Shown here piece by piece: positions 4,153-15,856 of a stretch of 20,371 nucleotides of DNA. Position numbers and translations under genes: made by a program. Location of the stretch: positions 1 through 20,371 of IMG/VR virus record IMGVR_UViG_3300046804_001432; one strand, 5' to 3'. This DNA is from a virus. The notes below the pieces were generated by a model that did not search any database, was not told where the DNA came from, and saw only the letters and a program-made list of their open reading frames with translations. Numbering within the stretch: position 1 is the first letter of the stretch; each line of letters starts with the position of its first letter.

Positions 4153-5163
4153 TTACCCCACCAAGTAGCCATGTTCGTCGTAGTAGTTCCCTTGGCCGTC
4201 GTGATATGCGGCGTTTTTCGGCATCACATCTTCTACGTCGCCACCATCGGCCATCCACACAGCACCACCATCTGCCTTTGTCGCAGGCTTGCCTGCTTGC
4301 ATTGCGGTGTTTGCGGCGTTTTGAACCGAGGTTGGATCGCCAGAGTAGAGCGAGTACAGGATCGAGCCAAGCGAACCAATTTGCGCCAACGGACTGATGC
4401 CATACTGGCCCTGCTGTCCCGGCCCCGTGGTTTGCTGAATCGAACCAGTGGGCACGCTTTGACCAGAAAGCAACTTGGCAAAGTTCTGCGCGGCCACCAT
4501 TGGGTAGTCGAGCGCCTTCTGGCCGAGTTCCTGCTCCTTCGCGCCAAGGTTGTAGAGGGCATTCAAGCCGCCAGTCCCGGTTTGGAACTGCTCTTGGCCC
4601 AATTGGGTCAGGGCTTGGCCTGCCGACAACTGACGGCCCAGATCGGTCTGAGCGGCTTTGGTGGCCGTGTCGTAGCCAGACTGGAGGGCTTGGTACTGCT
4701 TGCCCAGCAAATCGGCTTGGATGTCGCGCAAGGTGTTGCCAGTGATCTGTTGTTGGCGACGTGAGCCATACTGGCCCGTGCCAATCGCGGCCCCGCCCAG
4801 CGCGGGCAGGATGTTCTCCTGCACGTTGCGGTTGACCAATCGACCCATCTCGTCGACCACGGCGCTTTGATAGGGGTTCATGTAGCCCCCGACGATTGCC
4901 GGGGCGGGTGTTCCGCCTGCGCCAGTGATCATCTGGCTGGCCTGACCCAGTGAGCCAGAGCCAGAGAATGCCAAGTTGGGAGCCATCTGAAACGCCTGCT
5001 CTTGAAGCGGCGAAAAGCCAGCCACGCCACCCTGCTGGACGGCGCTCTGGCCCAAGTTGGCAATGTCTTGGAGGTAGTTGGTGTAGAACTCGGGCGCGGT
5101 TTCCTGCTTCTGAACCGTGGTGGTTACATCAGGTAGCGCCGCTCCTTGAAAGAGATCAGCCAT
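4153..5163 (-). CDS. Internal virion / DNA-ejection-type protein (336 aa)
   Basis: This Gln/Gly/Ala-rich protein has features seen in phage internal virion proteins: a YMNPYQSAVVDEM segment (94-106), a GTGQYGSRRQQQ segment (128-139), and alternating amphipathic helices (150-230). The last ~40 residues carry KADGGAVWMADGGDVEDV and HDGQGNYYDEHGYLVG, short Gly-rich motifs that recur in the upstream 868-aa protein. No catalytic site is visible. The ATG at 5163 overlaps the previous stop by 8 bases and has a perfect AAGGAGG at 5176-5170 with 6-base spacing, which fixes the start. It probably works with its neighbours in the ejection complex; this is inferred from context. Confidence 0.68.
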   Translation of the reverse strand: MADLFQGAALPDVTTTVQKQETAPEFYTNYLQDIANLGQSAVQQGGVAGFSPLQEQAFQMAPNLAFSGSGSLGQASQMITGAGGTPAPAIVGGYMNPYQSAVVDEMGRLVNRNVQENILPALGGAAIGTGQYGSRRQQQITGNTLRDIQADLLGKQYQALQSGYDTATKAAQTDLGRQLSAGQALTQLGQEQFQTGTGGLNALYNLGAKEQELGQKALDYPMVAAQNFAKLLSGQSVPTGSIQQTTGPGQQGQYGISPLAQIGSLGSILYSLYSGDPTSVQNAANTAMQAGKPATKADGGAVWMADGGDVEDVMPKNAAYHDGQGNYYDEHGYLVG

Positions 5164-7762
5164 TCATAGCCTCCTTGAGATAGTTCAAAGGTGATTTAGC
5201 CTTTGGGGGTATTTTATTGAGAGGGGCGCTTCGCTTGTGTGAGCGCACAGCCTCCCGGAAATCGTCGAGCACTTTGGCCCCGGCCTTGTTGGAGCCGTTA
5301 CCCAGCATGGAGACCAACTCAGCGTCGATCACATACTCGCCATCAGCCAGCCAAGCGGGGATGTCGTCGGACTGGCCGTCGCCCGCGCCGTTGACTGCCG
5401 AGCCTTTGCGGAAATCGATGCGATCATCGATCACCGGGTTGGTGTGGTGGCTGTGGACGGTGTGAGCCTGCGACAAGCCACCCTTCTTCATGCCTTGACC
5501 GATGCCAAGGTTCTGGGCTGGGTCGATCACGCGCCCGAAGGTGTAGTGGGTCGTGGGGCCACCCGAGGCCATCGTCGGCTCCTCAGCGGGTTCTGCGGCG
5601 TTTTCCTGCGGGGTCTCAGCCTCCAGCGCGTTGCCATACTGATCGACCGGGTTGCCGTTCTGGTCAACGTAGTCGGTCATGTTGGGTTCGTTGAGCCAGC
5701 CAGAAATGCCCAGATCGGCGTATAGGCGCTCGTCAGGAACGTCAGCACCATACCCTTGGGAATAGTCTTGATACGACACGATGGGGCTACCAGTGCCCGT
5801 GCGGCCACCAGTCATGCCGGGGCCAAAGTCGGTGGTGCGCGGGGCAAAGCCAGCCAACTGGGAGATGTCCACAGGAGCGTGGCCTGACGAACCGCTGTCG
5901 CCAGACGAACTCATCATGGAGGCCAGCAACGCGCCGATTGCGCCGCCAGCAAGGCCGGGGTTCTGCGTGATGTAACCCTTGAGGGCATCGAGCACGCCAG
6001 ACTGGTTTTGACCACCTTGACCAGTGACGGCATTTGCCACCTGCGACAAGAAACTTGGCTTGTTGCCACTGCCAGCAGAAGTCACTGCGGCGCGGCCACC
6101 GCCAACTGGGATCACGTTGCCTTGAGAATCAAACACGGTGACGCGCCCATTTGCGTCAGTGATGGTGGTGTTGCCCTCATCATCTGTCGTCACGCTAATT
6201 GCGCTGTCGGTTTGAACTGGTTCGGCCTCGGACATATTTGAGCGAGACAATTCAGCGCCCGTGTTGTTGTCAACGGTAACGTAGTCGTTGCCATCCCAAT
6301 AACTTGAAGTGCCGTCGCCGTTGTCAATCACATCTGGCGCAGAACTGCTGGCAGGGCTGGCGGTAAGGTCGGTGTACGTCGGGTTGTAAGAAGTCCCGCT
6401 GTACAAAGAATTGTCGCCAGTCAGCGTGTTGTCGCTGTAGTTGTAATCCACGTTTTGCCAAGGCTGAACCTCTTCGGTCGTATCAGAGTAAACCGAGTCG
6501 CCTGCGGCATAGCCTTTGATTTTTCCGCCAGTTGCCATACCAATATAGCCTCCATCTTTTGCATTTTCTTCGGGCACATCGACGTAGTCGGTGTAGTCGG
6601 TGTTGTCGGAAACAGTGATGTCAGGACTGCCAACATCTTCAGTTGTCCAGTTGCCGTCTGCGCCGAGAGTCCATGTTTGATTTGTTTCTGGATCAGTCCA
6701 AGTTTCCTCGGCGACAACCGTGTCAGAACCAGTGTCTGCGTTCGGGTCATAAATCAAGTCGCCGTTGACATCAAAATACTCTCCATTGCTTCCAAGAGAA
6801 TAAAGCAAGTTGCCTTGGCCGTCATAGATGTTGCCATCAGCATCTTGGTAGTAACCTACATCGCCACCACTGAGCAAGGTGTCTTGAGTTTCATCAACAC
6901 CAGTTTTACCACCAACCAAACTACGAGCGCCGCCACCAGAAGGCTCTTCGGCTTTGGTTTCAATCAAAGTGCCGTTTGCGTCATAGATGCTCACAATCCC
7001 GTTGTTGGTGACTGTGTATGTGCCGTCTTCATTGGCAACAGCGCCATCAGGCATGATTGGCTCTTCAGATGCTTTGACCTTGTCCAACTCTGCTTGAATT
7101 TGCTCTTCGGTCAAAGGTTTGTCACCAGTTGTAGTGCCCAACCCTCTGCTTGGCGTGCCGCCAGTTGTTGGTTTTGTGACGGGTGTAGTCCCGCCAGTGG
7201 TTGGCTTGATCACAGGCGAAGAACCGCCAGTCGTTGTTTTTGTTCCGCCAGTTGTGGGAGAGCCAAAAATTTTGCCAGCCAACGCGCCAGCACCAGCACC
7301 GATCAGCGTCTTGGCAATCGGGTTGTTCAACATACTGGTGATGCCACTGCTACTCGAACCAGACGGTCTTGTGGCGGCGGGTGAGTTGGTCTTGCTGGTG
7401 ATTGGATTCACCGCAGGCTTGGTGGTCGTGCTCGTGATCGGCTTGGTTGCCGCCGGGGTCTTGGTGGTCGCAGGGGTCGAGCCAGACGACTTCACAGCAG
7501 GCGACGCAGGGCGAATGGTCGTGGCAGTCTTGGCCGCAACGGGAGCCTTGGTCGTGCTGGTAATGGGGGCGACAGGCCGAGAGGTAGCACCCTTGGACGG
7601 CGCAACAGTGGAAGACACCGCTTGACTGATTGGGGTCTTGCGGTTCACACTGCGGTCAATTCGTTGAGGCGAAAACACTTGGCGCGGCGAATTGAGCATC
7701 ACCGAACTGATGGTTTGGACGGGAGTCCTTTTTTCCATTGGGTTGCGAATTGCTCGTGCCAT
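5156..7762 (-). CDS. Large repeat-rich virion-associated protein (868 aa)
   Basis: Residues 41-141 are a Thr/Ser/Pro/Ala/Lys-rich, mucin-like stretch. A Gly-zipper-like segment follows (AKTLIGAGAGALAGKIFGS, 150-168), then PTTGG-type repeats (169-213). Residues 240-550 hold many short Asp/Asn-Gly hairpin motifs such as DADGNIYDGQGNLLY and VFDSQGNVI. A second Gly-rich hydrophobic patch lies at 603-616. The C terminus has a compact module (about 757-842) containing GDGQSDDIPAWLADGEYV and LGNGSNKAGAKVLDDF, which I recall from other phage structural proteins. No enzyme motif is visible. Two hydrophobic patches and a position among ejection proteins suggest an internal virion or membrane-channel component; this is inferred. 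The start follows the upstream TAA by 3 bases, with AGGA nearby. Confidence 0.65.
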   Translation of the reverse strand: MARAIRNPMEKRTPVQTISSVMLNSPRQVFSPQRIDRSVNRKTPISQAVSSTVAPSKGATSRPVAPITSTTKAPVAAKTATTIRPASPAVKSSGSTPATTKTPAATKPITSTTTKPAVNPITSKTNSPAATRPSGSSSSGITSMLNNPIAKTLIGAGAGALAGKIFGSPTTGGTKTTTGGSSPVIKPTTGGTTPVTKPTTGGTPSRGLGTTTGDKPLTEEQIQAELDKVKASEEPIMPDGAVANEDGTYTVTNNGIVSIYDANGTLIETKAEEPSGGGARSLVGGKTGVDETQDTLLSGGDVGYYQDADGNIYDGQGNLLYSLGSNGEYFDVNGDLIYDPNADTGSDTVVAEETWTDPETNQTWTLGADGNWTTEDVGSPDITVSDNTDYTDYVDVPEENAKDGGYIGMATGGKIKGYAAGDSVYSDTTEEVQPWQNVDYNYSDNTLTGDNSLYSGTSYNPTYTDLTASPASSSAPDVIDNGDGTSSYWDGNDYVTVDNNTGAELSRSNMSEAEPVQTDSAISVTTDDEGNTTITDANGRVTVFDSQGNVIPVGGGRAAVTSAGSGNKPSFLSQVANAVTGQGGQNQSGVLDALKGYITQNPGLAGGAIGALLASMMSSSGDSGSSGHAPVDISQLAGFAPRTTDFGPGMTGGRTGTGSPIVSYQDYSQGYGADVPDERLYADLGISGWLNEPNMTDYVDQNGNPVDQYGNALEAETPQENAAEPAEEPTMASGGPTTHYTFGRVIDPAQNLGIGQGMKKGGLSQAHTVHSHHTNPVIDDRIDFRKGSAVNGAGDGQSDDIPAWLADGEYVIDAELVSMLGNGSNKAGAKVLDDFREAVRSHKRSAPLNKIPPKAKSPLNYLKEAMNG
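5170..5176 (-). promoter_or_regulatory. Strong Shine-Dalgarno inside the preceding gene
   Basis: AAGGAGG on the minus strand lies 6 bases before the ATG at 5163 and inside the last codons of the upstream 868-aa gene. It is the best ribosome site I see in the window. It selects ATG 5163 over the out-of-phase ATG at 5168. It suggests strong independent initiation for the 336-aa protein. Confidence 0.7.
7126..7258 (-). repeat. In-gene PTTGG repeats
   Basis: Tandem degenerate units encoding PTTGG(T/S) and (I/T)KPTTGG occur at residues 169-213 of the 868-aa protein, with GCCAGTnGTnGG-like repeats visible in the DNA on the plus strand. They form a flexible Thr/Gly linker after the first Gly-zipper. 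Copy number could vary by slippage or recombination. Confidence 0.6.
7342..7642 (-). repeat. Thr/Ser/Pro/Ala-rich low-complexity coding segment
   Basis: Residues 41-141 of the 868-aa protein are built from near-repeats of ITSTT, TTKPA, TKTPA and KPITS. The composition is mucin-like, with regularly spaced Lys/Arg and very few hydrophobic residues, so the segment is probably disordered. Confidence 0.55.
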
Positions 7763-7765
7763 GTT

Positions 7766-9466
7766 TTATCCTGATTTTTTGATGTTCTTCAAAATCGATG
7801 TCAGGCTTGAACTTCCAGAAACTGGGGTGAGCGTGCTGACATTGACCTTTCTCGGCGCGGCCATCGGGGCCGAACTTGTTCTGCTGACTGGCATGAGTTT
7901 GGACACATCCATCTGAATCGGTGGCCTTGTGGGCTTGGTTGCCGCAACTCTCATTGCCGCCATCTGCTGAGGGCTTAGTTGCTGACGAGCCGCTGGCTTT
8001 GTCGGGATCAACGACTTGGTGATTGCGTTGGTCAACTGAGGCTTGAGCACCGAGGTCAACTTGCCCGCCAAAGCACCAGAAACAGCGCCAGCGCCTACGG
8101 TTTGCGCGGCAGAAGGCTTTTCCTCTTCCACCTTGGTTGGGATGTTAGCGGCCTTTTGTTCTTCGGTCGGGTTCACCTGAGCAACGCTGGCGGCAACGTC
8201 CGTTGGCGCAGGCTGTTCCGGGGCTTGGGGCGCTTCGGTAACTTGACTCAACCCGCCAACCGGGGTCGTCGCGTCAGCCGCAGGAGCCGCAGGCTGAACA
8301 GTTGAGTCGGCGACGTTGATCGTGTCATCAACGCTGGCCGATTTCGGGGCAATTGAAGGCTCTTGAGTGTCTTCCGCGCCAGTGATAAGTTGATTCAACC
8401 CGCCAGCATTTTTTGCGTCATTCCCGGCAACAGCATTCAGGCCATCTTCCTCACTTCCAGTCTTGGTGACATCTGGCTGATCTTCCCCGGTAATGGAGTC
8501 GTCAATGCCAGAGGACTTGGCGTACTTGAATGCGGCATCGACACCCTCGTTCACAAGAGCGCCAACGCCAGTGTTGATGAGGCCCAAGGTCGGATCGCGG
8601 CCCTGAACTACGCTGTTGGCAACACTGCCAGCCAATTTGCCAGCCAGCGCCGAATCGGTCTGATCGGCCACCTCACTGCCAACGAGACGACCCAATTCGT
8701 TGCCAGCCATGCTTGTCAGGTTCACGTCACCCGTGGTGACCAATTGCTTGGTGGCGTTCGCGGCGACTCGACCAGCAAGATCAGAGCCAGTGGCTTGAGC
8801 AATCTCTCCGCCCAAAGCGCCAGTGCCCAAGGACAGCGCGGTGTTCTCAAGCGCCTTACCAAAGTCACCGCCATTCGTCGCAGTATTGACTGCAACCTGA
8901 CCAGCCAGTTTTTGGAACATTGGATCAGCATCGGGGATCAGGTTTTCGCCGATCAACTTGGTGATGTTCTGTGCGCCGTTCGACAAAGTCTCCCATGCGC
9001 TTGCCATTGTGTTGCTTGCGGTGCTGGCAACCTCGGTCATTGCGCTGGTCTCCACAGCACCAGCAGTGGCAGAAGACACAGCCTCGGCGACCGTTGCACC
9101 TTCGCTGACCAAAGATGCGGCAGTGGTTGCCTCGGCGACCGTAGCACCAGCCTGAACAACGGTGGTGGCGGCGGCGGTCTCAGCGGAGGCCACGGCCACG
9201 GCAGACTCAGTCGCCTCAAGAACAGCCGCACCAGTGCTGACAGCCTCAGCCGTGGAGGCAATTTCCAGCGCCCCAACGGTAGCGGTCTCAGCCGCCAATG
9301 CGCTCAGGGCATATGGAGCCGCCACTGCGGCCACAATCAAAATTGGGTTCTCGGCGACGGTTTCGACAACCTGCTCGGCAACGTCGACAACCGTCTCGAC
9401 CACATCGCCGACTGTCTCGACGACGGAAGAAACCACATTGGAGACTGCCTCAACAACTGCACTCAT
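7766..9466 (-). CDS. Ala/Val-rich internal virion protein with hydrophobic segment (566 aa)
   Basis: The N terminus (4-40) is a Val/Glu helix with repeated VVETV units. A hydrophobic segment follows (PILIVAAVAAPYALSALAAE, 41-60) that could insert in a membrane. Residues 100-140 are Ala/Thr/Val repeats with two GATVAEA copies. Residues 187-315 hold three ~44-residue repeats, each starting LAG(Q/R/K) followed by a Val/Ala-rich helix. The C-terminal third is Pro/Ala/Gln-rich and ends with two copies of a VSxLxPVSxxSS motif. I recognise the style of phage ejection proteins but no named family. It starts by ATGA overlap with the 150-aa gene and precedes four further ejection-type genes, like the order of T7 internal core genes. 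Function is inferred. Confidence 0.63.
   Translation of the reverse strand: MSAVVEAVSNVVSSVVETVGDVVETVVDVAEQVVETVAENPILIVAAVAAPYALSALAAETATVGALEIASTAEAVSTGAAVLEATESAVAVASAETAAATTVVQAGATVAEATTAASLVSEGATVAEAVSSATAGAVETSAMTEVASTASNTMASAWETLSNGAQNITKLIGENLIPDADPMFQKLAGQVAVNTATNGGDFGKALENTALSLGTGALGGEIAQATGSDLAGRVAANATKQLVTTGDVNLTSMAGNELGRLVGSEVADQTDSALAGKLAGSVANSVVQGRDPTLGLINTGVGALVNEGVDAAFKYAKSSGIDDSITGEDQPDVTKTGSEEDGLNAVAGNDAKNAGGLNQLITGAEDTQEPSIAPKSASVDDTINVADSTVQPAAPAADATTPVGGLSQVTEAPQAPEQPAPTDVAASVAQVNPTEEQKAANIPTKVEEEKPSAAQTVGAGAVSGALAGKLTSVLKPQLTNAITKSLIPTKPAARQQLSPQQMAAMRVAATKPTRPPIQMDVSKLMPVSRTSSAPMAAPRKVNVSTLTPVSGSSSLTSILKNIKKSG
8522..8908 (-). repeat. Triplicated ~44-residue coding repeat
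   Basis: Within the 566-aa protein, three units begin at residues 187 (LAGQVAVN), 230 (LAGRVAAN) and 275 (LAGKLAGS). Each is followed by a Gly-Asp or Gly-Arg-Asp turn about 14 residues later and then a second Gly/Leu-rich helix. The 43-45 residue spacing suggests an array of helical hairpins from internal duplication. Confidence 0.55.
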
Positions 9467-9915
9467 TCTTCGCTCCCACGAGCCGCGCCAAGTTTCAACG
9501 TGACTTGGTAGCCGCCATCATCGGTTTTTTGAACTGCGTACCCCATCCCCTCGCGCACGGGGTTGCGTGAGATGACCTTGAAAATGCCAATCAGGCTGGA
9601 GTCGGTGAACTGGGTGACCACCACGTCAAAGCCAACCTTGTAGGCGGCATCAGCAAAAATGCGACCGTTCTCGACAAAGTTGCGCGGGGTGTCTGCGTTG
9701 AGAGCGCGGAAGTAGCCGTAGGCGGGGTATTTGGTCTTGTGGACGATGAAGATGGTGTTGCCCTCTTGCATCTTCCAGACGTTGGGCATACTGAACTCGA
9801 TGGTCAGCATCTCCTTCACCTGCTTCATCGGGCGACCGACCTTGGTGTTGGCGGCGGCGATCTCAATGACCTGCTCACTCGTCAACTTCCGCTGTTTGCT
9901 GTCCACCATGTCCAT
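9463..9915 (-). CDS. Putative GNAT-like protein (150 aa)
   Basis: A small helical N terminus (KLTSEQVIEIAAANTKVG) is followed by an alpha/beta region: EGNTIFIVHKTKYPAYGYFR, a helix (FVENGRIFADAAYKVGF), a strand (DVVVTQF), DSSLIGIFKVIS and a final strand (GGYQVTLKLG). This strand-helix-strand order resembles GNAT acyltransferase folds, including the GNAT-like T7 gp13 internal core protein that also precedes the internal virion genes. This is a fold-level impression; no clear acyl-CoA P-loop is visible. It begins directly after the KS stop (TAA-ATG) with AAGGGA upstream, and overlaps the 566-aa gene by ATGA. It could be a virion protein, an acyltransferase paired with the ACP/KS, or neither. 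Confidence 0.4.
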   Translation of the reverse strand: MDMVDSKQRKLTSEQVIEIAAANTKVGRPMKQVKEMLTIEFSMPNVWKMQEGNTIFIVHKTKYPAYGYFRALNADTPRNFVENGRIFADAAYKVGFDVVVTQFTDSSLIGIFKVISRNPVREGMGYAVQKTDDGGYQVTLKLGAARGSEE

Positions 9916-11025
9916 TTACATTCCCTTCAGTATTGATGCGGAGTAGATGTTTCCCATACCCGCCGCCAAACTGAGAATCAGCCCCGGAGGGGGGCTTACC
10001 GATTCCGACAAGAAAACCATATCGGTTTCGGTTCGGTTTTCAATGGCAGGCACGACTCCTTTTTTTATGTCATCCAACAGCAAAAGGGTTTCCAAAAGAC
10101 CACTTGCGCCCATCGTGTGACCAATTTTTTGCTTGTACGAGGTGGCGACAAAGTCCTTCAAAGTGCCTTCCAGCGCCCGTTTTTCAGCCAAGTTGTTAGA
10201 TTGTGTCCCAGTTCCGTGTGTTTTGACAATAGAAACCTGCCCCGCAGACGCGCCAGAAACGCTCAGAGCGCCCTCGATGGCCTTGGTGAAGCCCTGACCA
10301 TCCTCGCACTGTCCAATCGCGTTTGTGGACGATTCTGACGCGCTGTATGCACCCAGCAACTCGGCATTGGGGTAGATTGACGACTTGGCAATGACTCGCT
10401 CGGAGTCAAAAACCGCAAATGCGGCCCCTTGCCCGACGTGAAAGCCGTAGTTTTTGCTGTCAAAAGCCGAGGGCAGGATGCCATCAGCCTCTTCCTTGGC
10501 GCTCAGGGTGGCCCGAGCCTCCCCAAAGAACTCCAGCACGGCGTTGGACACCCCATCTTCGACCGTCAGGACGATGACCCGGTCAAAGCCATAGAACTTG
10601 ATCAGGGTCTGCACGTCCATGAGCGCCTTCAAACTGCTGGCGCAGGCCGAGGAATCGGTCGTGATGTGGTCAGTCACCCCGCAGGCTTGGGCAATGCGCC
10701 CAGCGTAGACCTGCGTCAAGGTGAAGGGCAGGAACTTGTACTGGTAGGTCAGGCGGCTGTCGTAGGGGCGCTGGCTGATGCCTGCAAAGTGCGCATTGCC
10801 TGCGGCAAGGATGAAGGCCGTCTTGCCCACTGGGTTCTCGCGCAAGTGCTTGATCAACTCAGGGTCAAGGACTTTGTCGGCCACCTTGTGCGGGGCATAG
10901 AAAAGCCCGCTTTTGGCGCGGGCGTAGGTGTCGGGGAACCAGTTCACCCTTTGAGGGTAGACAATGTCGTCGAATAATTCGACGTTGGTTGTTGAGGCTG
11001 TTCGGTAGTGCGTCAGGTAGATCAT
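9916..11025 (-). CDS. Beta-ketoacyl-ACP synthase (KAS II/FabF-like ketosynthase)
   Basis: This 369-residue thiolase-fold enzyme has all condensing-enzyme landmarks: nucleophile Cys128 in TTDSSACASSLKAL, His270 in VKTHGTGTQSNN, Lys298 and His303 in YKQKIGHTMGASG, and a Gly-rich C-terminal AAGMGNIYSASIL in place of the usual FGG/N loop. The Cys-His-His set is that of decarboxylating, elongating KAS I/II enzymes, which condense malonyl-ACP with an acyl chain. It is somewhat shorter than bacterial FabF (~412), mostly at the N terminus. The start codon overlaps the upstream ACP stop (ATGA), with AAGGAG 8 bases upstream, so ACP and KS are translationally coupled. Malonyl transfer, reduction and ACP priming would have to come from the host. 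The product and biological role are unknown. Confidence 0.88.
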   Translation of the reverse strand: MIYLTHYRTASTTNVELFDDIVYPQRVNWFPDTYARAKSGLFYAPHKVADKVLDPELIKHLRENPVGKTAFILAAGNAHFAGISQRPYDSRLTYQYKFLPFTLTQVYAGRIAQACGVTDHITTDSSACASSLKALMDVQTLIKFYGFDRVIVLTVEDGVSNAVLEFFGEARATLSAKEEADGILPSAFDSKNYGFHVGQGAAFAVFDSERVIAKSSIYPNAELLGAYSASESSTNAIGQCEDGQGFTKAIEGALSVSGASAGQVSIVKTHGTGTQSNNLAEKRALEGTLKDFVATSYKQKIGHTMGASGLLETLLLLDDIKKGVVPAIENRTETDMVFLSESVSPPPGLILSLAAGMGNIYSASILKGM

Positions 11026-11309
11026 TTGATCTGCTCCTTCGCCTTCTCTAGCGACTCAGGCTCCTTGGTTTTGTTTGCCATCAGCAGGTCATAGACCTCT
11101 TGCACGGTCTCTGGATGCCAGCCCTTTGTCTCGTCGTTGTCTGGGATGCCATAGAGTTCACAGAGGTACATCATCATCACCAACCCGTCGAGGCTGTCCA
11201 GCCCCAAGTCTTCCATCTTTTGATCCATCGCCGAAGCGGGCGTGAAGGACATATGGATAGGCTTGGCGACATGAGCCACCATGTTGAACAGGTCGATAAA
11301 GTTGATCAT
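11022..11309 (-). CDS. Acyl carrier protein
   Basis: This 95-residue acidic protein contains the phosphopantetheine attachment motif LGLDSLDGLVMMMYLCELYGI (given here as LGLDSLDG plus helix II), with Ser39 as the predicted modified residue. A leading helix (FIDLFNMVAHVAKP) and a last helix (TVQEVYDLLMANK) match the ACP four-helix bundle. It is a little longer than E. coli AcpP (78) because of a Lys/Glu-rich C-terminal tail. It would carry the growing acyl chain for the ketosynthase encoded next, after activation by a holo-ACP synthase that I do not see here. It overlaps the 86-aa gene upstream by ATGA and the KS downstream by ATGA. ACP identity is firm; physiological role is unknown. Confidence 0.85.
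   Translation of the reverse strand: MINFIDLFNMVAHVAKPIHMSFTPASAMDQKMEDLGLDSLDGLVMMMYLCELYGIPDNDETKGWHPETVQEVYDLLMANKTKEPESLEKAKEQIK
11034..11039 (-). promoter_or_regulatory. Shine-Dalgarno for the ketosynthase
   Basis: AAGGAG on the minus strand lies inside the end of the ACP gene, 8 bases before the KS ATG at 11025. Together with the ATGA overlap it supports coupled, possibly near-equal, expression of ACP and KS. Confidence 0.6.
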
Positions 11310-11566
11310 CCGTATGACACCTCAGTTGGCTGGTTGACCGCGCCCACCACTGCGGAGGCCCAGTCTTGCCAGTTTTCAAAGTTGTACGGGCCGGGGATGG
11401 CCTCGTTCACAAAAATGTCGATTGCCTTCAGACCAGCCGCCCACTCTTTCCAGTGCTCTTCGCCAGCAGGAATCGCCAACGATTGGCCTGCATAAGCCTC
11501 GCACATCAGACTCGCCCAAGAGTCCCAAGTGTGATAGCGGGGGTCATAAACAATCGCAAGTGCCAT
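11306..11566 (-). CDS. Small Trp-repeat phage protein (86 aa)
   Basis: The protein runs MALAIVYDPR to EVSYG. It has three WxxWA motifs at residues 14-18 (WDSWA), 39-43 (WKEWA) and 66-70 (WQDWA), about 25-27 residues apart, which suggests a small helical repeat protein. I recall similar short proteins next to tail genes of podovirus-like phages, but no function. I use ATG 11566, which follows the upstream TAA by 1 base (TAATATG). The frame is open further upstream, but that part lies inside the 702-aa gene. It overlaps the ACP start by ATGA, so it is part of the coupled chain. It may be a virion component or an accessory protein for the ACP/KS. Confidence 0.62.
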   Translation of the reverse strand: MALAIVYDPRYHTWDSWASLMCEAYAGQSLAIPAGEEHWKEWAAGLKAIDIFVNEAIPGPYNFENWQDWASAVVGAVNQPTEVSYG

Positions 11567-11567
11567 A

Positions 11568-13676
11568 TTAACTTCCAAACGGACGGGTATCGCCCAACTC
11601 GGCACTGAGAAGCACCTTGCCCATCTGGTAGTCACCACCAGCCTCATTGCTGATGAAGCGCAGACGCAATTCACGGCGCTGTTCGCGCATATCAATCTTG
11701 CCTGTGCCGGGTTCAAAGTAGTAGGGGTCGGAAATCACATCGTCGCTTTGAGCAAACGGACGGCCAACGATCTGCACGGACATCGTGCCCGACTGAACAA
11801 AATCAGGCTCGACGCGCTCCAAGCGCAACCAGCGGTTTTCGCCAACGCCGCCCTGCGGAATCTGCGGAGACTGCGAGGGGCCACCGCCAACCCAGCCAAG
11901 GTCGGATGTCTCGAACATGGACTCGACGGCATCGACGATGTCTCCAATGATCATGTCTGTGCCGATCTCGTGTTGCCAGATGGTGATCTTGCCGGGGATC
12001 GTGGTGAACGTCGCCGTCACAGTACCAGTGGCTGTTGCATTGACGTTCAGGCCAGTGTCTGGCGCAAACAGCGCAACGTCGTAGTACCCAGCGGTCGCGC
12101 TTGGTGCAATCGTTTTGATGACCGCGCCCACAGGAATGCCAGTTGCGACCACTTCAAGGTAAGTCCTGATGAGGTTGGTCACTGGAACCTTGATGACGTT
12201 GGAGCCATTGGTCGTGATGATCGAGGAACTGAACAAGTCTTCTGCAACAGTCTGCTCGGAGCCAGCGTTCACCGGGAATCGGAACACCTGAGAGAAGTAG
12301 CCAGCGGTGCGCTTGCAACCATTTGCAAAACCGCCGTCATACCAGCAGTTCTCGCGCACGTTGTAAATGATGACGTTGTTGCACTCTTCCGAATCGCCTT
12401 CGGGGTAGAACCACCAAATCTCGCCAAAGCGAGGAACCTTGGTCGCCCACACCTTCTGGCGTTGCGTGTAGTTCAAGTTGTCGAAGAAGTAGTTCTGGTT
12501 GAACGAGTTCGGCACTTCCTTGACCACGCCGTTGTACATCAAGAAGCGGTCAACGCCACACCAGTAGTAGATGCCGTCATACTCGATGACACCTTGGCTT
12601 GACAGGATCGAGGACTGGCTAGAAATGATGTCGTAGCGCCAGTAGAAGGTTTGAGGCGTGCCGCCCACCGTGATGGTCGTCGGGTTGTAGGACACGCGAA
12701 TGAGAGAGTCCAGCGACCAGAACAAGCCAGACGGCGCGTTCGAGCCACCGCGAACTGGCAAGCCTTTGACTACCTTGGTCGAGGCGACGTTGGTCTCGTT
12801 GGAATCTGGGCCGTTCCAGTCGTATGGGTCGCCAGCGACGGAGTTCTTGATCAAGCCGTTGTCGCCATACACAAAAACATACGGGTGCAAAACCACAACT
12901 CCGCCAGAGACGGAGATGACATCCCCGGTTGGAGATGTGCCGTTGGTGTCCTTCAAGGGCGCAAGTACCAGACCGTTGAGCGGGCCACCAAGCACGGCGG
13001 TGCTCACGGTGCTGTCAATCTGGGTGAGGTTGTGGCCGGGGTGAGCAAGCAAGAAGTTGTTGCCAGCACCAGAAGCATCGAACATGGAGTCAAACTGCCA
13101 AAGGTGGTTTGTGCTCGGAGTGAATAAGTCATCGACAGTTGAGACCACCACAGACCAGCCAGAACCCGTTCCGCCGATTGATGTGTTGGGGCAGGTGAGC
13201 ACATCGCCTGCGCAGTAGTAGTTGCCGTTGTTGGTGATCGTGACCGTGGTCACCACGTTGCCCGCCACCACAATCGTGGCAACTGCACCAGTCCCAGTGC
13301 CGCCAGTCAGCGCCACCCCGGTGTAGGTTCCATTGGTGTAGGCTGACCCGCCAGTGATTGTGCCAAGGGTCAGGATGTCGCCACCGAACTTCATCTCGTT
13401 CGTGCCAGCGCCGATGCCGTTGTTGTCGATGTCGATGACCTCAATGCCCTCGTCGTAGCCGTTGAAAATCTTGTTGATGCCGTCCTCGGAGTTCACATAG
13501 ATGCCGCGAGACAGGCCGTCGGCTGTCGTCGTGATGGCCTTGTAGCCGCCGACCTTACGAGGGCGACCACGCTGGAAACGAACCCATTTGCCATCCGTGT
13601 AAAAGTTTTTGTCGAAGTACGTCCCGTCCCGCTGAACGCCGGGTTGGGTGTCAATCGAAAAAACCTTTTTGGTCAT
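11568..13676 (-). CDS. Tail hub / stabilisation-type structural protein (702 aa)
   Basis: A conserved-looking N terminus (FSIDTQPGVQRDGT, YTDGKWVRFQRGRPRKVGGY) leads into a long beta-rich protein with many Trp/Tyr-Gly blades such as YWRYDIISSQ, GIYYWCGVDRF and WATKVPRFGEIWWFYPEGD. This suggests a beta-propeller like P22 gp10 or T7 gp12-type tail tube proteins. The N-terminal block is one I associate with podovirus tail proteins; the exact family is not proven. Residues ~101-181 look like an inserted small beta domain (see separate entry). It lies after the adaptor and the frameshifted structural gene, consistent with tail assembly. Its start overlaps the upstream stop by ATGA. Confidence 0.68.
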   Translation of the reverse strand: MTKKVFSIDTQPGVQRDGTYFDKNFYTDGKWVRFQRGRPRKVGGYKAITTTADGLSRGIYVNSEDGINKIFNGYDEGIEVIDIDNNGIGAGTNEMKFGGDILTLGTITGGSAYTNGTYTGVALTGGTGTGAVATIVVAGNVVTTVTITNNGNYYCAGDVLTCPNTSIGGTGSGWSVVVSTVDDLFTPSTNHLWQFDSMFDASGAGNNFLLAHPGHNLTQIDSTVSTAVLGGPLNGLVLAPLKDTNGTSPTGDVISVSGGVVVLHPYVFVYGDNGLIKNSVAGDPYDWNGPDSNETNVASTKVVKGLPVRGGSNAPSGLFWSLDSLIRVSYNPTTITVGGTPQTFYWRYDIISSQSSILSSQGVIEYDGIYYWCGVDRFLMYNGVVKEVPNSFNQNYFFDNLNYTQRQKVWATKVPRFGEIWWFYPEGDSEECNNVIIYNVRENCWYDGGFANGCKRTAGYFSQVFRFPVNAGSEQTVAEDLFSSSIITTNGSNVIKVPVTNLIRTYLEVVATGIPVGAVIKTIAPSATAGYYDVALFAPDTGLNVNATATGTVTATFTTIPGKITIWQHEIGTDMIIGDIVDAVESMFETSDLGWVGGGPSQSPQIPQGGVGENRWLRLERVEPDFVQSGTMSVQIVGRPFAQSDDVISDPYYFEPGTGKIDMREQRRELRLRFISNEAGGDYQMGKVLLSAELGDTRPFGS
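13134..13376 (-). other. Inserted YTNGTY-type beta domain within the tail protein
   Basis: Residues ~101-181 of the 702-aa protein contain SAYTNGTYTGVALTGGTGTG, then AVATIVVAGNVVTTVTITNNG, YYCAGDVLTC and IGGTGSGWSVVV. I know this pattern as a small beta domain that turns up in unrelated phage tail and fibre proteins. It interrupts the flanking MKFGGD and WQFDSMF context. Boundaries are approximate. Confidence 0.5.
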
Positions 13677-14518
13677 GTGAACGTACCCCCAGAGATGCCC
13701 CCGGTGAATGTGCCAGTCCCGTTGATGGTCAGGCCAGTTGCAGACAGCGTGAATAGGTTGTTGCCCAAGATGGCGATGTTGAACTGACCAGAGGCGGCGT
13801 GGTACACGCCCGTGGTCGGCTCAGTGCCGAAGTACAGCGCGGGGCTGGAAACTGAGCCGTCAACCAAACCAATGGCGGTCGCGCCAGCCAGCACGGTGTT
13901 GGCGTTCACGAGATTGACCGAGTCGCAAATCAAGGTGGCTTGCTGGTTCGAGCCAATCGTCGCGGCAGAGCCACCCGTGTTGGTGGTCACCGTGACGGTG
14001 TAGTTCGACACCCCGCCGTTCGTGGCGTTTTGAATGTAGTACACCTGAACCGTCTGCGGCACGATGATGGTCACGTTGCCAGTGAGCACGCCCGTGTACT
14101 TCTGGATCACGTTTGCGGCCTCAGCGGCGGTCAGCGTGTAGGTTCCAGAGGTCACCGCCTTGGTCAACTGCGTGAAGTTGAACTGGGTGTTTTTGCCCAA
14201 GCCCACGGTGTAGAACACAGCGCCAGAGCAAACAATGATGCAGGAGTCAGCGGGCTGAAGCGTGAGAGTGGACGAGCCGTTGATCACGTCTCCGCCAGTG
14301 CAACCCACAGTCAGCGTGCCCGTACCACCGTTGCGCACGAACATGAACCAGTTGTCGCCGAGCGTGGTGACCGAGTCCAGAGTCATCGTGCCCGCGCCGC
14401 CAGTCCACACATAAGTGCTGGAGCGGTCGGTCGTGGTCACCGTGGCATTCGAGGAGAAGGTCGTGACAGGCTGCAAGGGTCGCCGCATCAGCGCCAGAGG
14501 AGCCAATGCCAAAAGCAA
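13673..14518 (-). CDS. Structural protein, C-terminal part after frameshift
   Basis: The frame is open from 14518 to TGA 13673-13675. Genuine-looking sequence begins about residue 15 (LQPVTTFSSNATVTTTDRSS); the preceding MLLALAPLALMRR is the out-of-phase reading of the upstream half. The protein is Thr/Asn/Gly-rich and beta-rich, with segments STYVWTGGAGTMTLDS, NTQFNFTQLTKAVTSGTYTL and a final SPALYFGTEPTTGVYHAASG block ending in GTFTGGISGG. I recall these from phage structural (fibre/appendage) proteins in which they follow the adjacent N-terminal part in one frame. It is therefore listed as the second half of a split gene at 13673-14870 (~398 aa if joined). The stop overlaps the 702-aa start (ATGA). 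Confidence 0.6.
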   Translation of the reverse strand: MLLALAPLALMRRPLQPVTTFSSNATVTTTDRSSTYVWTGGAGTMTLDSVTTLGDNWFMFVRNGGTGTLTVGCTGGDVINGSSTLTLQPADSCIIVCSGAVFYTVGLGKNTQFNFTQLTKAVTSGTYTLTAAEAANVIQKYTGVLTGNVTIIVPQTVQVYYIQNATNGGVSNYTVTVTTNTGGSAATIGSNQQATLICDSVNLVNANTVLAGATAIGLVDGSVSSPALYFGTEPTTGVYHAASGQFNIAILGNNLFTLSATGLTINGTGTFTGGISGGTFT

Positions 14519-14870
14519 TGATGCCCCATGTGCCCGAGGTGTCCGGGTTGGCGGTGATGTAGATGTAGCGGGCCTCCCCAGCGGGGATGGTCACAATCGT
14601 GTGAGCGCCAGCGTAATCCTTGACCGTGAACGGGTTGACACCGATGTTGCGGATCATCGCGTCTTGACCCACCGATGCCTGATTGGCGGGCGGCATCCAC
14701 AACTCAGCGTTGTTGGTGGCCGTCACCTCCATGATGCGGGCGGCTGAATCGTTGGTGGTCGAGCCGTTGATGGGCCACGTCAACTGCAAGGTCGACGACA
14801 GCGTGATGGAACGGTACGAAACGTCGGTTGGTTGAACGACGTTACCTGTGAAGGGGCTATTGAAACTCAT
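14247..14870 (-). CDS. Structural protein, N-terminal part before frameshift
   Basis: The sequence is good up to about residue 133 (MSFNSPFTGNVVQPTDVSYR, WPINGSTTNDSAARIMEVTA, WMPPANQASVGQDAMIRN, FGIGSSGADAATL). After that the frame turns into His/Arg/Cys-rich nonsense (CHDLLLECHGDHDRPLQ) to the stop at 14247, while the neighbouring frame continues the structural protein. The start overlaps the adaptor stop (TAATG). The beta-rich N-terminal part resembles phage virion appendage proteins whose exact job I do not know. Either the gene is broken, the sequence has an error, or a +1 shift joins the halves. A truncated 207-aa product is unlikely to be the intended protein. Confidence 0.6.
   Translation of the reverse strand: MSFNSPFTGNVVQPTDVSYRSITLSSTLQLTWPINGSTTNDSAARIMEVTATNNAELWMPPANQASVGQDAMIRNIGVNPFTVKDYAGAHTIVTIPAGEARYIYITANPDTSGTWGIIAFGIGSSGADAATLAACHDLLLECHGDHDRPLQHLCVDWRRGHDDSGLGHHARRQLVHVRAQRWYGHADCGLHWRRRDQRLVHSHASAR
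14471..14482 (-). other. Frameshift site in structural gene
   Basis: On the minus strand the sequence reads GCG ACC CTT GCA GCC TGT in the N-terminal frame. The downstream protein continues as CAG CCT GTC ACG, one base later. Removing one base of CTT would give ACC CTG CAG CCT (TLQPV) and a continuous protein. A loss of 3n+2 bases relative to relatives would have the same effect. I cannot separate mutation, assembly error and programmed +1 frameshifting by sight. Confidence 0.6.
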
Positions 14871-15505
14871 TATGAATCCACCGCAACGGCTTGACGATCA
14901 GCGAGTCGCAATTTGTCCTCAGCCATCAGCGTTTGCATGATCAAGTCATAGTTCTGTTGCCACATGGGCATCCGCTCGTCGTTCTTGAGGAACGGCATCG
15001 CCTGCAACAAAGAACCATACAGCAACGCTTGGGGGGCATAAATTGTGAACCAGTTCGTCTGGTTAGAAGAATCCAAAGGCTGGATGCGCTCGTAGTACAG
15101 AACCTCAAACGAATAGTCTGTGTCCGGGGTGGGCGCTACCAACCAGTGGGTGTAGTCGTAGTCCGCAAAGTATGCGGGCGTACCAGTCTCGGTCGCGTCG
15201 GGCCAATACTCACGAAGGTACTCATACTTGCGCAACAGCACGGGCTGGCGCTTGCCTGCGACCGTGATGTTGAACGAAACCGTTTTGTGCCAACGAGCGG
15301 GCTTGTCGATCACCGCTGAGTTGGAAACCATAGTGGATTCCTGAACGGTCAGGTTTCCGAGGAATTTGATTTGGCTGGCAATCGTTTGCTCGGCCAGCAT
15401 GATGAAGAGGGGAATCTTCTCCAGCGTCGCCGTGTCGGTGCGCTCTAGGTATGACTGGATGTTTTCGACCAGTGAGTCATAGGTCATTACCGAGGCGGTT
15501 GCCAT
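14870..15505 (-). CDS. Head-tail adaptor protein (SU10-type, 211 aa)
   Basis: The 211 residues match the pattern I know for phage SU10-type adaptors: a helical N terminus with TYDSLVENIQSYLERTD and EKIPLFIMLAEQTIASQIK, a central beta part with LLRKYEYLREYWPD, ETGTPAYFADYDYTHWLVAPTPD and EVLYYERIQPL, and a C-terminal helix pair APQALLYGSLLQAMPFLKND plus MPMWQQNYDLIMQTLM. Such proteins form a ring under the portal and connect the capsid to the tail. A portal gene is not in the window. The ATG has AAGGAG directly upstream, and the gene lies 9 bases after the endolysin stop. Its TAA overlaps the next ATG. Its place right after the lysis genes is notable. Confidence 0.8.
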   Translation of the reverse strand: MATASVMTYDSLVENIQSYLERTDTATLEKIPLFIMLAEQTIASQIKFLGNLTVQESTMVSNSAVIDKPARWHKTVSFNITVAGKRQPVLLRKYEYLREYWPDATETGTPAYFADYDYTHWLVAPTPDTDYSFEVLYYERIQPLDSSNQTNWFTIYAPQALLYGSLLQAMPFLKNDERMPMWQQNYDLIMQTLMAEDKLRLADRQAVAVDS

Positions 15506-15514
15506 TTGTTCTCC

Positions 15515-15856
15515 TTATCCGACATTGCGCTCAAAATGCGGGCAATCCACCAAGGATTTGAAGTTTCCGCCCCAACGGTTTTTGGGGTGCAAAGACTCCC
15601 AAAATGCCCCCAAAGGCGCAAGCACGCCCTTGTCCCAGATTATCTGCCCATCCTTGAAGAAGTTCAAGTCGATGGCGCACCGCTTCAGGTGGTTCGAGTT
15701 CATGGTCTTGGAGCGCCCGGTTTTGACGTAAATCGTCTGCTGTTCTACCGTCCGGGCCAGTTCTCCCCCGGTGACCACAAACCCTTGCTCGGTCGCAAAC
15801 TGGATCAGTTTGATGGCATCCAGCAAAAATTCGGCTTGCTCTTGCACCAGACTCAT
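15515..15856 (-). CDS. M15-family endolysin (113 aa)
   Basis: This is a compact zinc peptidase of the M15 (VanY / L-alanyl-D-glutamate endopeptidase-like) type. Predicted zinc ligands are His56 and Asp63 in SNHLKRCAIDLNF and His107 in DCPHFE, with Asp104 as the likely catalytic residue. WGGNFKS before the last motif is also typical. It lacks a signal peptide and a separate wall-binding domain, so it should need the adjacent holin to reach the peptidoglycan, where it would cut peptide cross-links at the end of infection. At 113 residues it is at the short end but has the complete metal site. It overlaps the holin stop by ATGA. Confidence 0.85.
   Translation of the reverse strand: MSLVQEQAEFLLDAIKLIQFATEQGFVVTGGELARTVEQQTIYVKTGRSKTMNSNHLKRCAIDLNFFKDGQIIWDKGVLAPLGAFWESLHPKNRWGGNFKSLVDCPHFERNVG

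What the first reader, a model, noticed from the sequence alone, without database searches (positions are those of the whole stretch)
9916..11309. ACP and ketosynthase pair embedded in a phage virion operon
Seen: an ACP with the DSL serine (Ser39) and a KAS II-like synthase with Cys128, His270, Lys298 and His303 are joined by ATGA overlap and coupled to structural genes on both sides. Known: these residues are those of active elongating condensing enzymes working on ACP-bound chains. Inferred: the phage makes or extends a specific acyl chain late in infection, perhaps to modify virion proteins, alter the host membrane before lysis, or produce a signal. No reductase, dehydratase or malonyltransferase is visible, so the host would supply them. 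Fatty-acid genes placed among tail and ejection genes rather than with metabolic genes are unusual.
Basis: partly seen in the sequence, partly recalled or inferred. Interest (0 to 1): 0.85.

Follow-up and report, generated by a model that had tools for sequence, protein, structure and literature searches.

The report
Phage acylation cassette for ejection protein
A widespread group of uncultured phages carries its own fatty-chain carrier, chain-building enzyme and acyltransferase-like protein as one block beside an internal virion protein, which suggests, without proof yet, that the phage attaches a lipid to the protein it uses to enter cells.

Summary
ACP (11309..11022) and ketosynthase (11025..9916) are intact, coupled by ATGA, and have the catalytic residues claimed (invariant in 28/28 relatives). 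The KS is not host FabF: 18-27% identical to cellular KSs, with invariant changes in the gating loops.

The 150-aa protein (9915..9463) has a predicted GNAT acyltransferase fold without the CoA-loop glycines. ACP, KS and GNAT form one unit: among 100 relatives with readable flanks, 62 have all three, 26 none, 12 GNAT alone, and none has ACP/KS without GNAT. The unit tracks the N-terminus of the following gene, a putative ejection protein (9466..7766): M-S/G-A-V plus a long amphipathic helix. A held-out HMM of that N-terminus finds it in 76/79 loci with the unit and 0/26 without. In relative L097 the flanks are 59-92% identical, but ACP, KS, GNAT and the first ~185 residues of that protein are replaced together.

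Best explanation (inferred): the GNAT moves an acyl chain from phage ACP, extended by the phage KS, onto the ejection protein's N-terminal region, probably the N-terminal Ser/Gly. It would work like HlyC/CdiC toxin acylation but is not a member of that family. No relative is cultured and I found no published description.

The parts
11306..11566 (-). 86-aa Trp-rich conserved protein, left border gene of the exchanged block (kept in relatives that lack ACP/KS/GNAT)
   Evidence: conserved at 49-85% (41% in L082) in 27 aligned loci; present in all 36 adaptor-anchored loci without KS
11022..11309 (-). acyl carrier protein, phosphopantetheine site Ser39 in DSLD
   Evidence: DSLD invariant in 28/28; profile matches solved ACPs 1e-4; relative L067 over PF00550 cut-off
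9916..11025 (-). ketosynthase with C128/H270/K298/H303 and phage-specific gating loops (N235, I237, M357, N359, Y361)
9463..9915 (-). 150-aa predicted GNAT-fold acyltransferase, start codon directly follows the KS stop; no CoA pyrophosphate-loop glycines (R70-A-L-N73-A-D75)
   Evidence: AlphaFold pLDDT 89, Foldseek PDB hits nearly all GNATs at prob about 1.00, TM about 0.5-0.59; BFVD hits include T7-type internal virion protein A and DUF2824
7766..9466 (-). 566-aa putative ejection (internal virion) protein, ATGA-coupled to the GNAT gene; proposed acylation substrate
   Evidence: C-terminal ~380 aa homologous to the corresponding protein of cassette-less phages, N-terminal ~185 aa not
9302..9466 (-). 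N-terminal segment M-S-A-V-V plus amphipathic helix and hydrophobic stretch of the 566-aa protein, without Lys; linked to the cassette
   Evidence: held-out HMM: 76/79 with cassette, 0/26 without GNAT; position entropies
11568..13676 (-). 702-aa tail/stabilisation-type virion protein upstream (flank); homologue named phage stabilization protein in MW202545
   Evidence: PHROG 3287 virion structural protein; MW202545 annotation
5156..7762 (-). 868-aa virion protein downstream (flank, kept in cassette-less relatives)
   Evidence: PHROG tape-measure-like C-terminus; 59% identity over residues 455-868 in L097
615..2438 (-). 607-aa glucosaminidase/transglycosylase-domain protein, last of the putative internal virion genes
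   Evidence: PF01832 1e-10
14870..15505 (-). SU10-type adaptor, used as an independent phylogenetic marker
   Evidence: PF24175 4e-25; tree

Best explanation
The ACP, KS and 150-aa GNAT-fold protein form a phage-encoded acylation cassette. Shown: three genes that travel as one unit; intact catalytic residues in ACP and KS; a GNAT fold predicted with good confidence for the third; tight linkage to the N-terminal region of the next gene product. Inferred, in order: (1) host AcpS charges the phage ACP at Ser39; (2) the phage KS condenses a host-made acyl chain with a malonyl unit on the phage ACP, giving a longer or 3-oxo acyl-ACP that host enzymes may or may not reduce; (3) the GNAT protein, which lacks the CoA-binding loop, takes the chain from ACP and transfers it to the 566-aa protein made from the overlapping next gene; (4) the acceptor is in its N-terminal region, most likely the alpha-amino group of Ser2/Gly2 after Met removal, since the conserved segment has no lysine; (5) the lipid and the amphipathic helix help this putative ejection protein insert into the host envelope during DNA entry. 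Phages that keep the GNAT and the MSAV N-terminus without ACP/KS would use a host acyl donor.
For: Intact catalytic Cys/His/Lys/His and DSL Ser, invariant. GNAT fold. Unit behaviour: 62 all / 26 none / 12 GNAT-only, never ACP or KS without GNAT, at least 3 all-to-none switches on the adaptor tree. N-terminus linkage: 76/79 vs 0/26 with a held-out HMM; 51/52 loci found by that N-terminus have the GNAT directly upstream and 49/52 the KS. Natural exchange window vs L097: flanks 59-92% identical, ACP+KS+GNAT plus about 185 N-terminal residues of the next protein replaced, its C-terminus kept. Distant relatives (KS 56-62% identical, most structural genes diverged) keep ACP-KS-GNAT and usually an MSAVV-type next protein. 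Translational coupling. Purifying selection. Precedent: acyl-ACP-dependent acyltransferases encoded beside their substrate lipidate RTX toxins and CdiA to promote membrane or LPS binding (PMC8510554); the T7 ejection protein gp14 inserts in the outer membrane (PMC8954989).
Against: No biochemistry; no acyl group or acceptor residue has been seen. The 566-aa protein is called an ejection protein from gene order, not proteomics. GNAT assignment is by predicted fold only (TM about 0.55; no Pfam, PDB-sequence or informative PHROG match), so an inactive structural GNAT is possible. Position-2 Ser/Gly/Ala is common in bacterial proteins (by eye about 8 of 12 late genes here have a small residue there), so the N-terminal site rests mainly on linkage. 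Linkage could partly reflect block exchange of neighbouring genes without biochemical dependence. GNAT-only phages show that ACP/KS are not strictly needed with the GNAT. The linkage counts reuse overlapping contigs and are not independent events.
Confidence: 0.5

Rival explanations
1. Auxiliary lipid metabolism: ACP and KS raise or alter host fatty-acid synthesis (chain length, membrane fluidity) late in infection; the GNAT and the virion protein are neighbours by chance.
For: KS and ACP are fatty-acid enzymes; fabG-acpP-fabF sets are reported in Rhodobacteraceae prophages (PMC8224337).
Against: No reductase, acyl transferase or PPTase in 16 large relatives; KS gating residues and the Lys65 ACP-docking position changed in all 28; placement fixed between tail and ejection genes in all 80 best loci; strict linkage to GNAT and to the next protein's N-terminus.
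Confidence: 0.15
2. The GNAT makes a small acylated molecule (N-acyl amino acid or homoserine-lactone-like signal) from acyl-ACP, as LuxI and FeeM enzymes do.
For: GNAT fold; the LuxI-type TofI (3p2h) and an NRPS acyltransferase are among the structural hits; an ACP donor suits LuxI-type chemistry.
Against: No reason for linkage to the N-terminal region of a virion protein and for exchange together with it; late operon position.
Confidence: 0.12
3. The proteins are assembly factors, not enzymes: GNAT-fold protein as chaperone of the ejection protein (like T7 gp13 or P22 gp14), with ACP and KS recruited as structural partners.
For: T7 gene 13 and P22 gene 14 lie in the same place, directly before the first ejection gene; viral structural hits include internal virion protein A and DUF2824, the family of P22 gp14.
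Against: Catalytic Cys/His/Lys/His and DSL Ser invariant across all relatives, not expected for purely structural roles; no sequence match to T7 gp13 or P22 gp14.
Confidence: 0.15
4. The GNAT acetylates or acylates the ejection protein with CoA donors, while ACP/KS serve another target (e.g. a lysine elsewhere in the virion, or a tail protein).
For: GNAT-only phages keep the MSAV N-terminus.
Against: ACP/KS never occur without the GNAT; the GNAT loop has Asn/Asp where CoA-binding GNATs have Gly.
Confidence: 0.08

Closest known systems
Toxin-activating acyltransferase systems (HlyC/CyaC/ApxC with RTX toxins; CdiC with class IV CdiA)
   Same: Acyltransferase encoded beside a membrane-active substrate; acyl-ACP donor (for the phage, inferred); from general knowledge ApxC is itself a GNAT-fold enzyme.
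   Different: No Pfam match to the HlyC family; the phage brings its own ACP and KS; the conserved N-terminal acceptor segment has no Lys; the substrate is a phage internal protein, not a secreted toxin.
FabF / KAS II and type II polyketide KS (actinorhodin KS)
   Same: Fold (TM about 0.8) and catalytic Cys-His-Lys-His.
   Different: 18-27% identity; shorter divergent N-terminal part; H268N, T270I, F400M, G402N, N404Y and Lys65 to Asp/Glu/Gln in all 28 phage KSs; far below the FabF equivalog cut-off.
T7 gp13-gp14 and P22 gp14-gp7 (factor gene directly before the first ejection gene)
   Same: Gene order; similar length; GNAT-like structural neighbours in the viral library.
   Different: No detectable sequence homology; no ACP or KS between the tail and ejection genes of T7 or P22.
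Rhodobacteraceae prophage fabG-acpP-fabF (PMC8224337)
   Same: ACP and KS genes in a phage context.
   Different: There the set has the E. coli fab order and includes fabG; here no fabG, a distinct KS, a GNAT, and a virion operon.
Caudoviricetes sp. ctpbd312 (MW202545, Manatee Spring)
   Same: Same cassette and order: ACP, KS (annotated 3-oxoacyl-ACP synthase), GNAT, MGGV next protein.
   Different: Annotated without context; ACP, GNAT and next protein are 'hypothetical protein'.

Membership tests
Elongating KAS I/II ketosynthase (FabB/FabF) | Catalytic Cys-His-His plus Lys at FabF positions 163, 303, 340, 335 | tested here: met
   28/28 phage KSs
Elongating KAS I/II ketosynthase (FabB/FabF) | Thiolase fold of KAS I/II type | tested here: met
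   Foldseek actinorhodin KS and E. coli FabF, E about 1e-21, TM about 0.8
Elongating KAS I/II ketosynthase (FabB/FabF) | FabF equivalog score (TIGR03150, 493.75 bits) | tested here: not met
   100.9 bits
Elongating KAS I/II ketosynthase (FabB/FabF) | Gating loop GFGG with Phe400 and Asn404; His268/Thr270 | tested here: not met
   GMGN, Tyr, Asn, Ile in 28/28
Acyl carrier protein (PF00550) | D-S-L attachment serine | tested here: met
   28/28
Acyl carrier protein (PF00550) | Family score above cut-off | tested here: inconclusive
   window 14.3 vs 20.8; L067 21.5, over cut-off; 17 of 28 members match at E<=1, best 3e-4
Acyl carrier protein (PF00550) | 4'-phosphopantetheine attached in vivo | not testable with these tools
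   needs mass spectrometry
GNAT superfamily | GNAT fold | tested here: met
   pLDDT 89; PDB hits almost all GNATs at prob about 1.00, TM 0.5-0.59
GNAT superfamily | Q/RxxGxG/A CoA pyrophosphate loop | tested here: not met
   R70-A-L-N73-A-D75 at that place; N73 and D75 invariant in 43
Toxin-activating acyltransferase (HlyC, PF02794) | Sequence match to the family | tested here: not met
   no match among 43 members at E<=1
Toxin-activating acyltransferase (HlyC, PF02794) | Acyl-ACP as donor, lysine of a membrane-active substrate as acceptor | not testable with these tools
   ACP gene linked; conserved segment without Lys argues against a Lys acceptor
T7 gp13 (PF11090) / P22 gp14 (PF11039) factors | Directly upstream of the first ejection gene | tested here: met
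   with the 566-aa gene assumed to be the first ejection gene
T7 gp13 (PF11090) / P22 gp14 (PF11039) factors | Sequence homology | tested here: not met
   hhalign probability 0.2 and 0.04 %; no Pfam match
Fatty-acid synthesis auxiliary gene set | Accompanying reductase, acyl transferase or PPTase | tested here: not met
   0 of 16 large relatives; dehydratase not searched

The most novel reading that the evidence does not exclude
Phages carry a self-contained protein-lipidation system, ACP + dedicated ketosynthase + GNAT acyltransferase, which N-terminally acylates a membrane-penetrating ejection protein. The GNAT-like factors found directly upstream of ejection genes in T7 (gp13) and P22 (gp14), and upstream of MG-, MGCC- or MC-starting proteins in other phages, would then be simpler versions of the same N-terminal modification of ejection proteins.
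Probability: 0.22. Interest if true: 0.92.

Novelty: new variant of a known kind. Interest (0 to 1): 0.8.

Why it matters
Lipidation of an ejection protein by phage enzymes would be a new step in phage entry. It would give a chemical reason why these proteins can pass from a water-soluble capsid store into host membranes, and would explain the long-unexplained GNAT-like genes beside ejection genes. It would also add a non-metabolic reading for some viral 'fatty-acid AMGs', and provide a compact ACP-KS-acyltransferase set with an apparently diverged ACP interface. The cassette is widespread (at least 220 IMG/VR stretches) but only one of 50,697 deposited phage records has it, so it has been overlooked.

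Tried and rejected
Recent host FabF capture: rejected, 18-27% identity and phage KSs on one side of a fully supported branch; the genome-collection scan found one KS relative, on a phage-like contig in a Balneolaceae MAG. Degenerate pair: rejected, dN/dS 0.06-0.12 and invariant residues. Listeria, Enterococcus, Staphylococcus and Pseudomonas 'phage' KS hits: unannotated records, 24-31% identity, probably bacterial DNA in phage preparations; not used. Sequence searches of the 150-aa protein against Pfam, PDB sequences and PHROGs: nothing informative. Homology to T7 gp13 or P22 gp14 by profile comparison: not detected; to the 127-aa lone GNAT-like protein of other phages: detected (probability 92%). 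Literature: no phage paper on an ACP-KS pair in a virion operon; vibriophage R16F has a lone ACP.

Full report
Check of the observation. The window is an IMG/VR virus record of 20,371 bases. On the minus strand the late genes run adaptor, two-frame tail gene, 702-aa stabilisation-type protein, 86-aa protein, ACP, KS, 150-aa protein, 566-aa protein, then 868-, 336-, 569- and 607-aa proteins. From the 86-aa gene to the 566-aa gene the reading frames are chained: ATGA overlaps at 11306-11309, 11022-11025 and 9463-9466, and the 150-aa start directly follows the KS stop. Against E. coli FabF, phage C128, H270, K298 and H303 match C163, H303, K335 and H340, in 28 of 28 phage KSs; the ACP DSLD is invariant in 28. 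The predicted KS structure (pLDDT 87) matches actinorhodin KS and FabF best.

What the KS is. It is a separate lineage: 18-27% identical to seven cellular KSs, all phage KSs on one side of a fully supported branch, and below 31% to anything in plasmids or in phage records other than MW202545. It has lost, in all 28 members, residues that gate the KAS I/II pocket (H268N, T270I, F400M, G402N, N404Y). The Lys65 position, which from general knowledge docks acidic host ACP, is Asp, Glu or Gln. I infer that it has its own ACP partner and possibly an unusual substrate. It is under strong purifying selection (dN/dS 0.07-0.12).

The missing gene. The 150-aa protein after KS has no sequence match, but AlphaFold with 42 relatives gives pLDDT 89. 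Foldseek then returns almost only GNAT acyltransferases: lysine acetyltransferase, RimI, SpeG, the LuxI-type TofI, and an NRPS acyltransferase. At the CoA pyrophosphate loop it has R70-A-L-N73-A-D75 instead of R/QxxGxG/A; N73 and D75 are invariant. This fits a donor other than CoA but does not show it. The viral library adds T7-type 'internal virion protein A' and a DUF2824 protein; P22 gp14 is DUF2824 and T7 gp13 is PF11090. Both lie directly upstream of the first ejection gene. Sequence homology to them was not detected.

A unit, not three neighbours. The best 80 KS loci keep one order. Distant loci with 56-62% KS identity, where most structural genes have diverged, still have ACP-KS-GNAT. 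Starting from the adaptor gene instead, 8 of 44 loci with enough sequence carry the cassette and 36 have the 86-aa gene but none of the three. Over 100 loci the states are all three 62, none 26, GNAT only 12; ACP or KS without GNAT does not occur, and the adaptor tree needs at least three switches between all and none. GNATs without KS form their own groups on the GNAT tree.

Linkage to the next protein. In 126 of 133 KS-bearing loci the following protein starts M-[SGA]-[AG]-V and continues as a long amphipathic helix. An HMM of the first 45 residues, trained on half the sequences, finds this N-terminus in 76 of 79 held-out cassette loci, in 7 of 13 GNAT-only loci, and in 0 of 26 loci with neither. 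In reverse, of 52 loci found by this N-terminus 51 have the GNAT directly upstream and 49 the KS (many are the same contigs as before, so these are not independent counts). The clearest case is window versus L097: endolysin 87%, adaptor 92%, stabilisation protein 68%, 86-aa protein 72% on one side and 59%, 74% and 70% on the other. Between them ACP, KS, GNAT and about 185 N-terminal residues of the 566-aa protein are replaced by an unrelated N-terminal region, while its C-terminal ~380 residues remain homologous (one search supports only the last 67 residues with composition adjustment). The exchanged block thus ends inside the 566-aa gene.

Mechanism proposed. Host AcpS charges the ACP; KS extends a host acyl chain on it; the GNAT passes the chain to the N-terminal region of the 566-aa protein. 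The conserved segment has no lysine, so the alpha-amino group of Ser2 or Gly2 is the most likely acceptor. Lipid plus amphipathic helix would help the protein enter the host envelope. All five steps are inference; the unit, the residues, the predicted fold and the linkage are results. No PPTase, short-chain reductase or acyl transferase was found in 16 large relatives, so the product before host processing would be a 3-oxoacyl chain. The analogy is acyl-ACP-dependent lipidation of RTX toxins and CdiA by an enzyme encoded next to the substrate (PMC8510554). The T7 ejection protein gp14 shows that such proteins insert into the outer membrane (PMC8954989).

Limits. The 566-aa protein is an ejection protein by gene order only. 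Ser/Gly/Ala at position 2 is common, so the exact site is weak. Phages with GNAT but no ACP/KS mean the pair is an addition to a simpler GNAT-substrate arrangement, or was lost. Linkage can arise from block exchange without dependence. No relative is cultured: one deposited, metagenome-derived genome (MW202545) has the cassette.

Verdict. Observation confirmed; interpretation narrowed and partly corrected. A phage ACP-KS-GNAT acylation cassette tied to a putative ejection protein is, as far as I can find, undescribed; its chemistry resembles a known kind (acyl-ACP-dependent protein acylation) without membership in it.

Noticed in passing
window 13673-14870 (-): The tail gene upstream of the 702-aa protein is split into two frames near 14470-14500; the homologue in L002 is one intact 412-aa ORF and in MW202545 one 406-aa CDS. 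Either an assembly error or a real frameshift.
   Followed up: partly
L220 3736-4378: A phage contig without ACP/KS has a 130-aa protein directly before a protein starting MGCCGG plus an amphipathic helix, a start that resembles an N-myristoylation/palmitoylation signal.
   Followed up: partly
L232-L238: A 127-aa protein homologous to the 150-aa GNAT (hhalign 92%) sits alone before proteins starting MGN, MSN or MAN in another phage group.
   Followed up: partly
L083 (JAGYJQ010000016.1): A contig binned in a Balneolaceae MAG carries the cassette among phage structural genes; possible host hint or mis-binned phage.
   Followed up: partly
window 15515-15856 (-): M15-type peptidase (endolysin) between virion genes, strongly conserved (81-91%) across the group.
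   Followed up: no
window 9916-11025 (-), NCBIfam NF058662 hit of the KS: The cispentacin acyltransferase subunit AmcF model (369 positions, same length as the phage KS) is among the better matches (94.7 bits, below cut-off); may point to a related stand-alone KS type.
   Followed up: no
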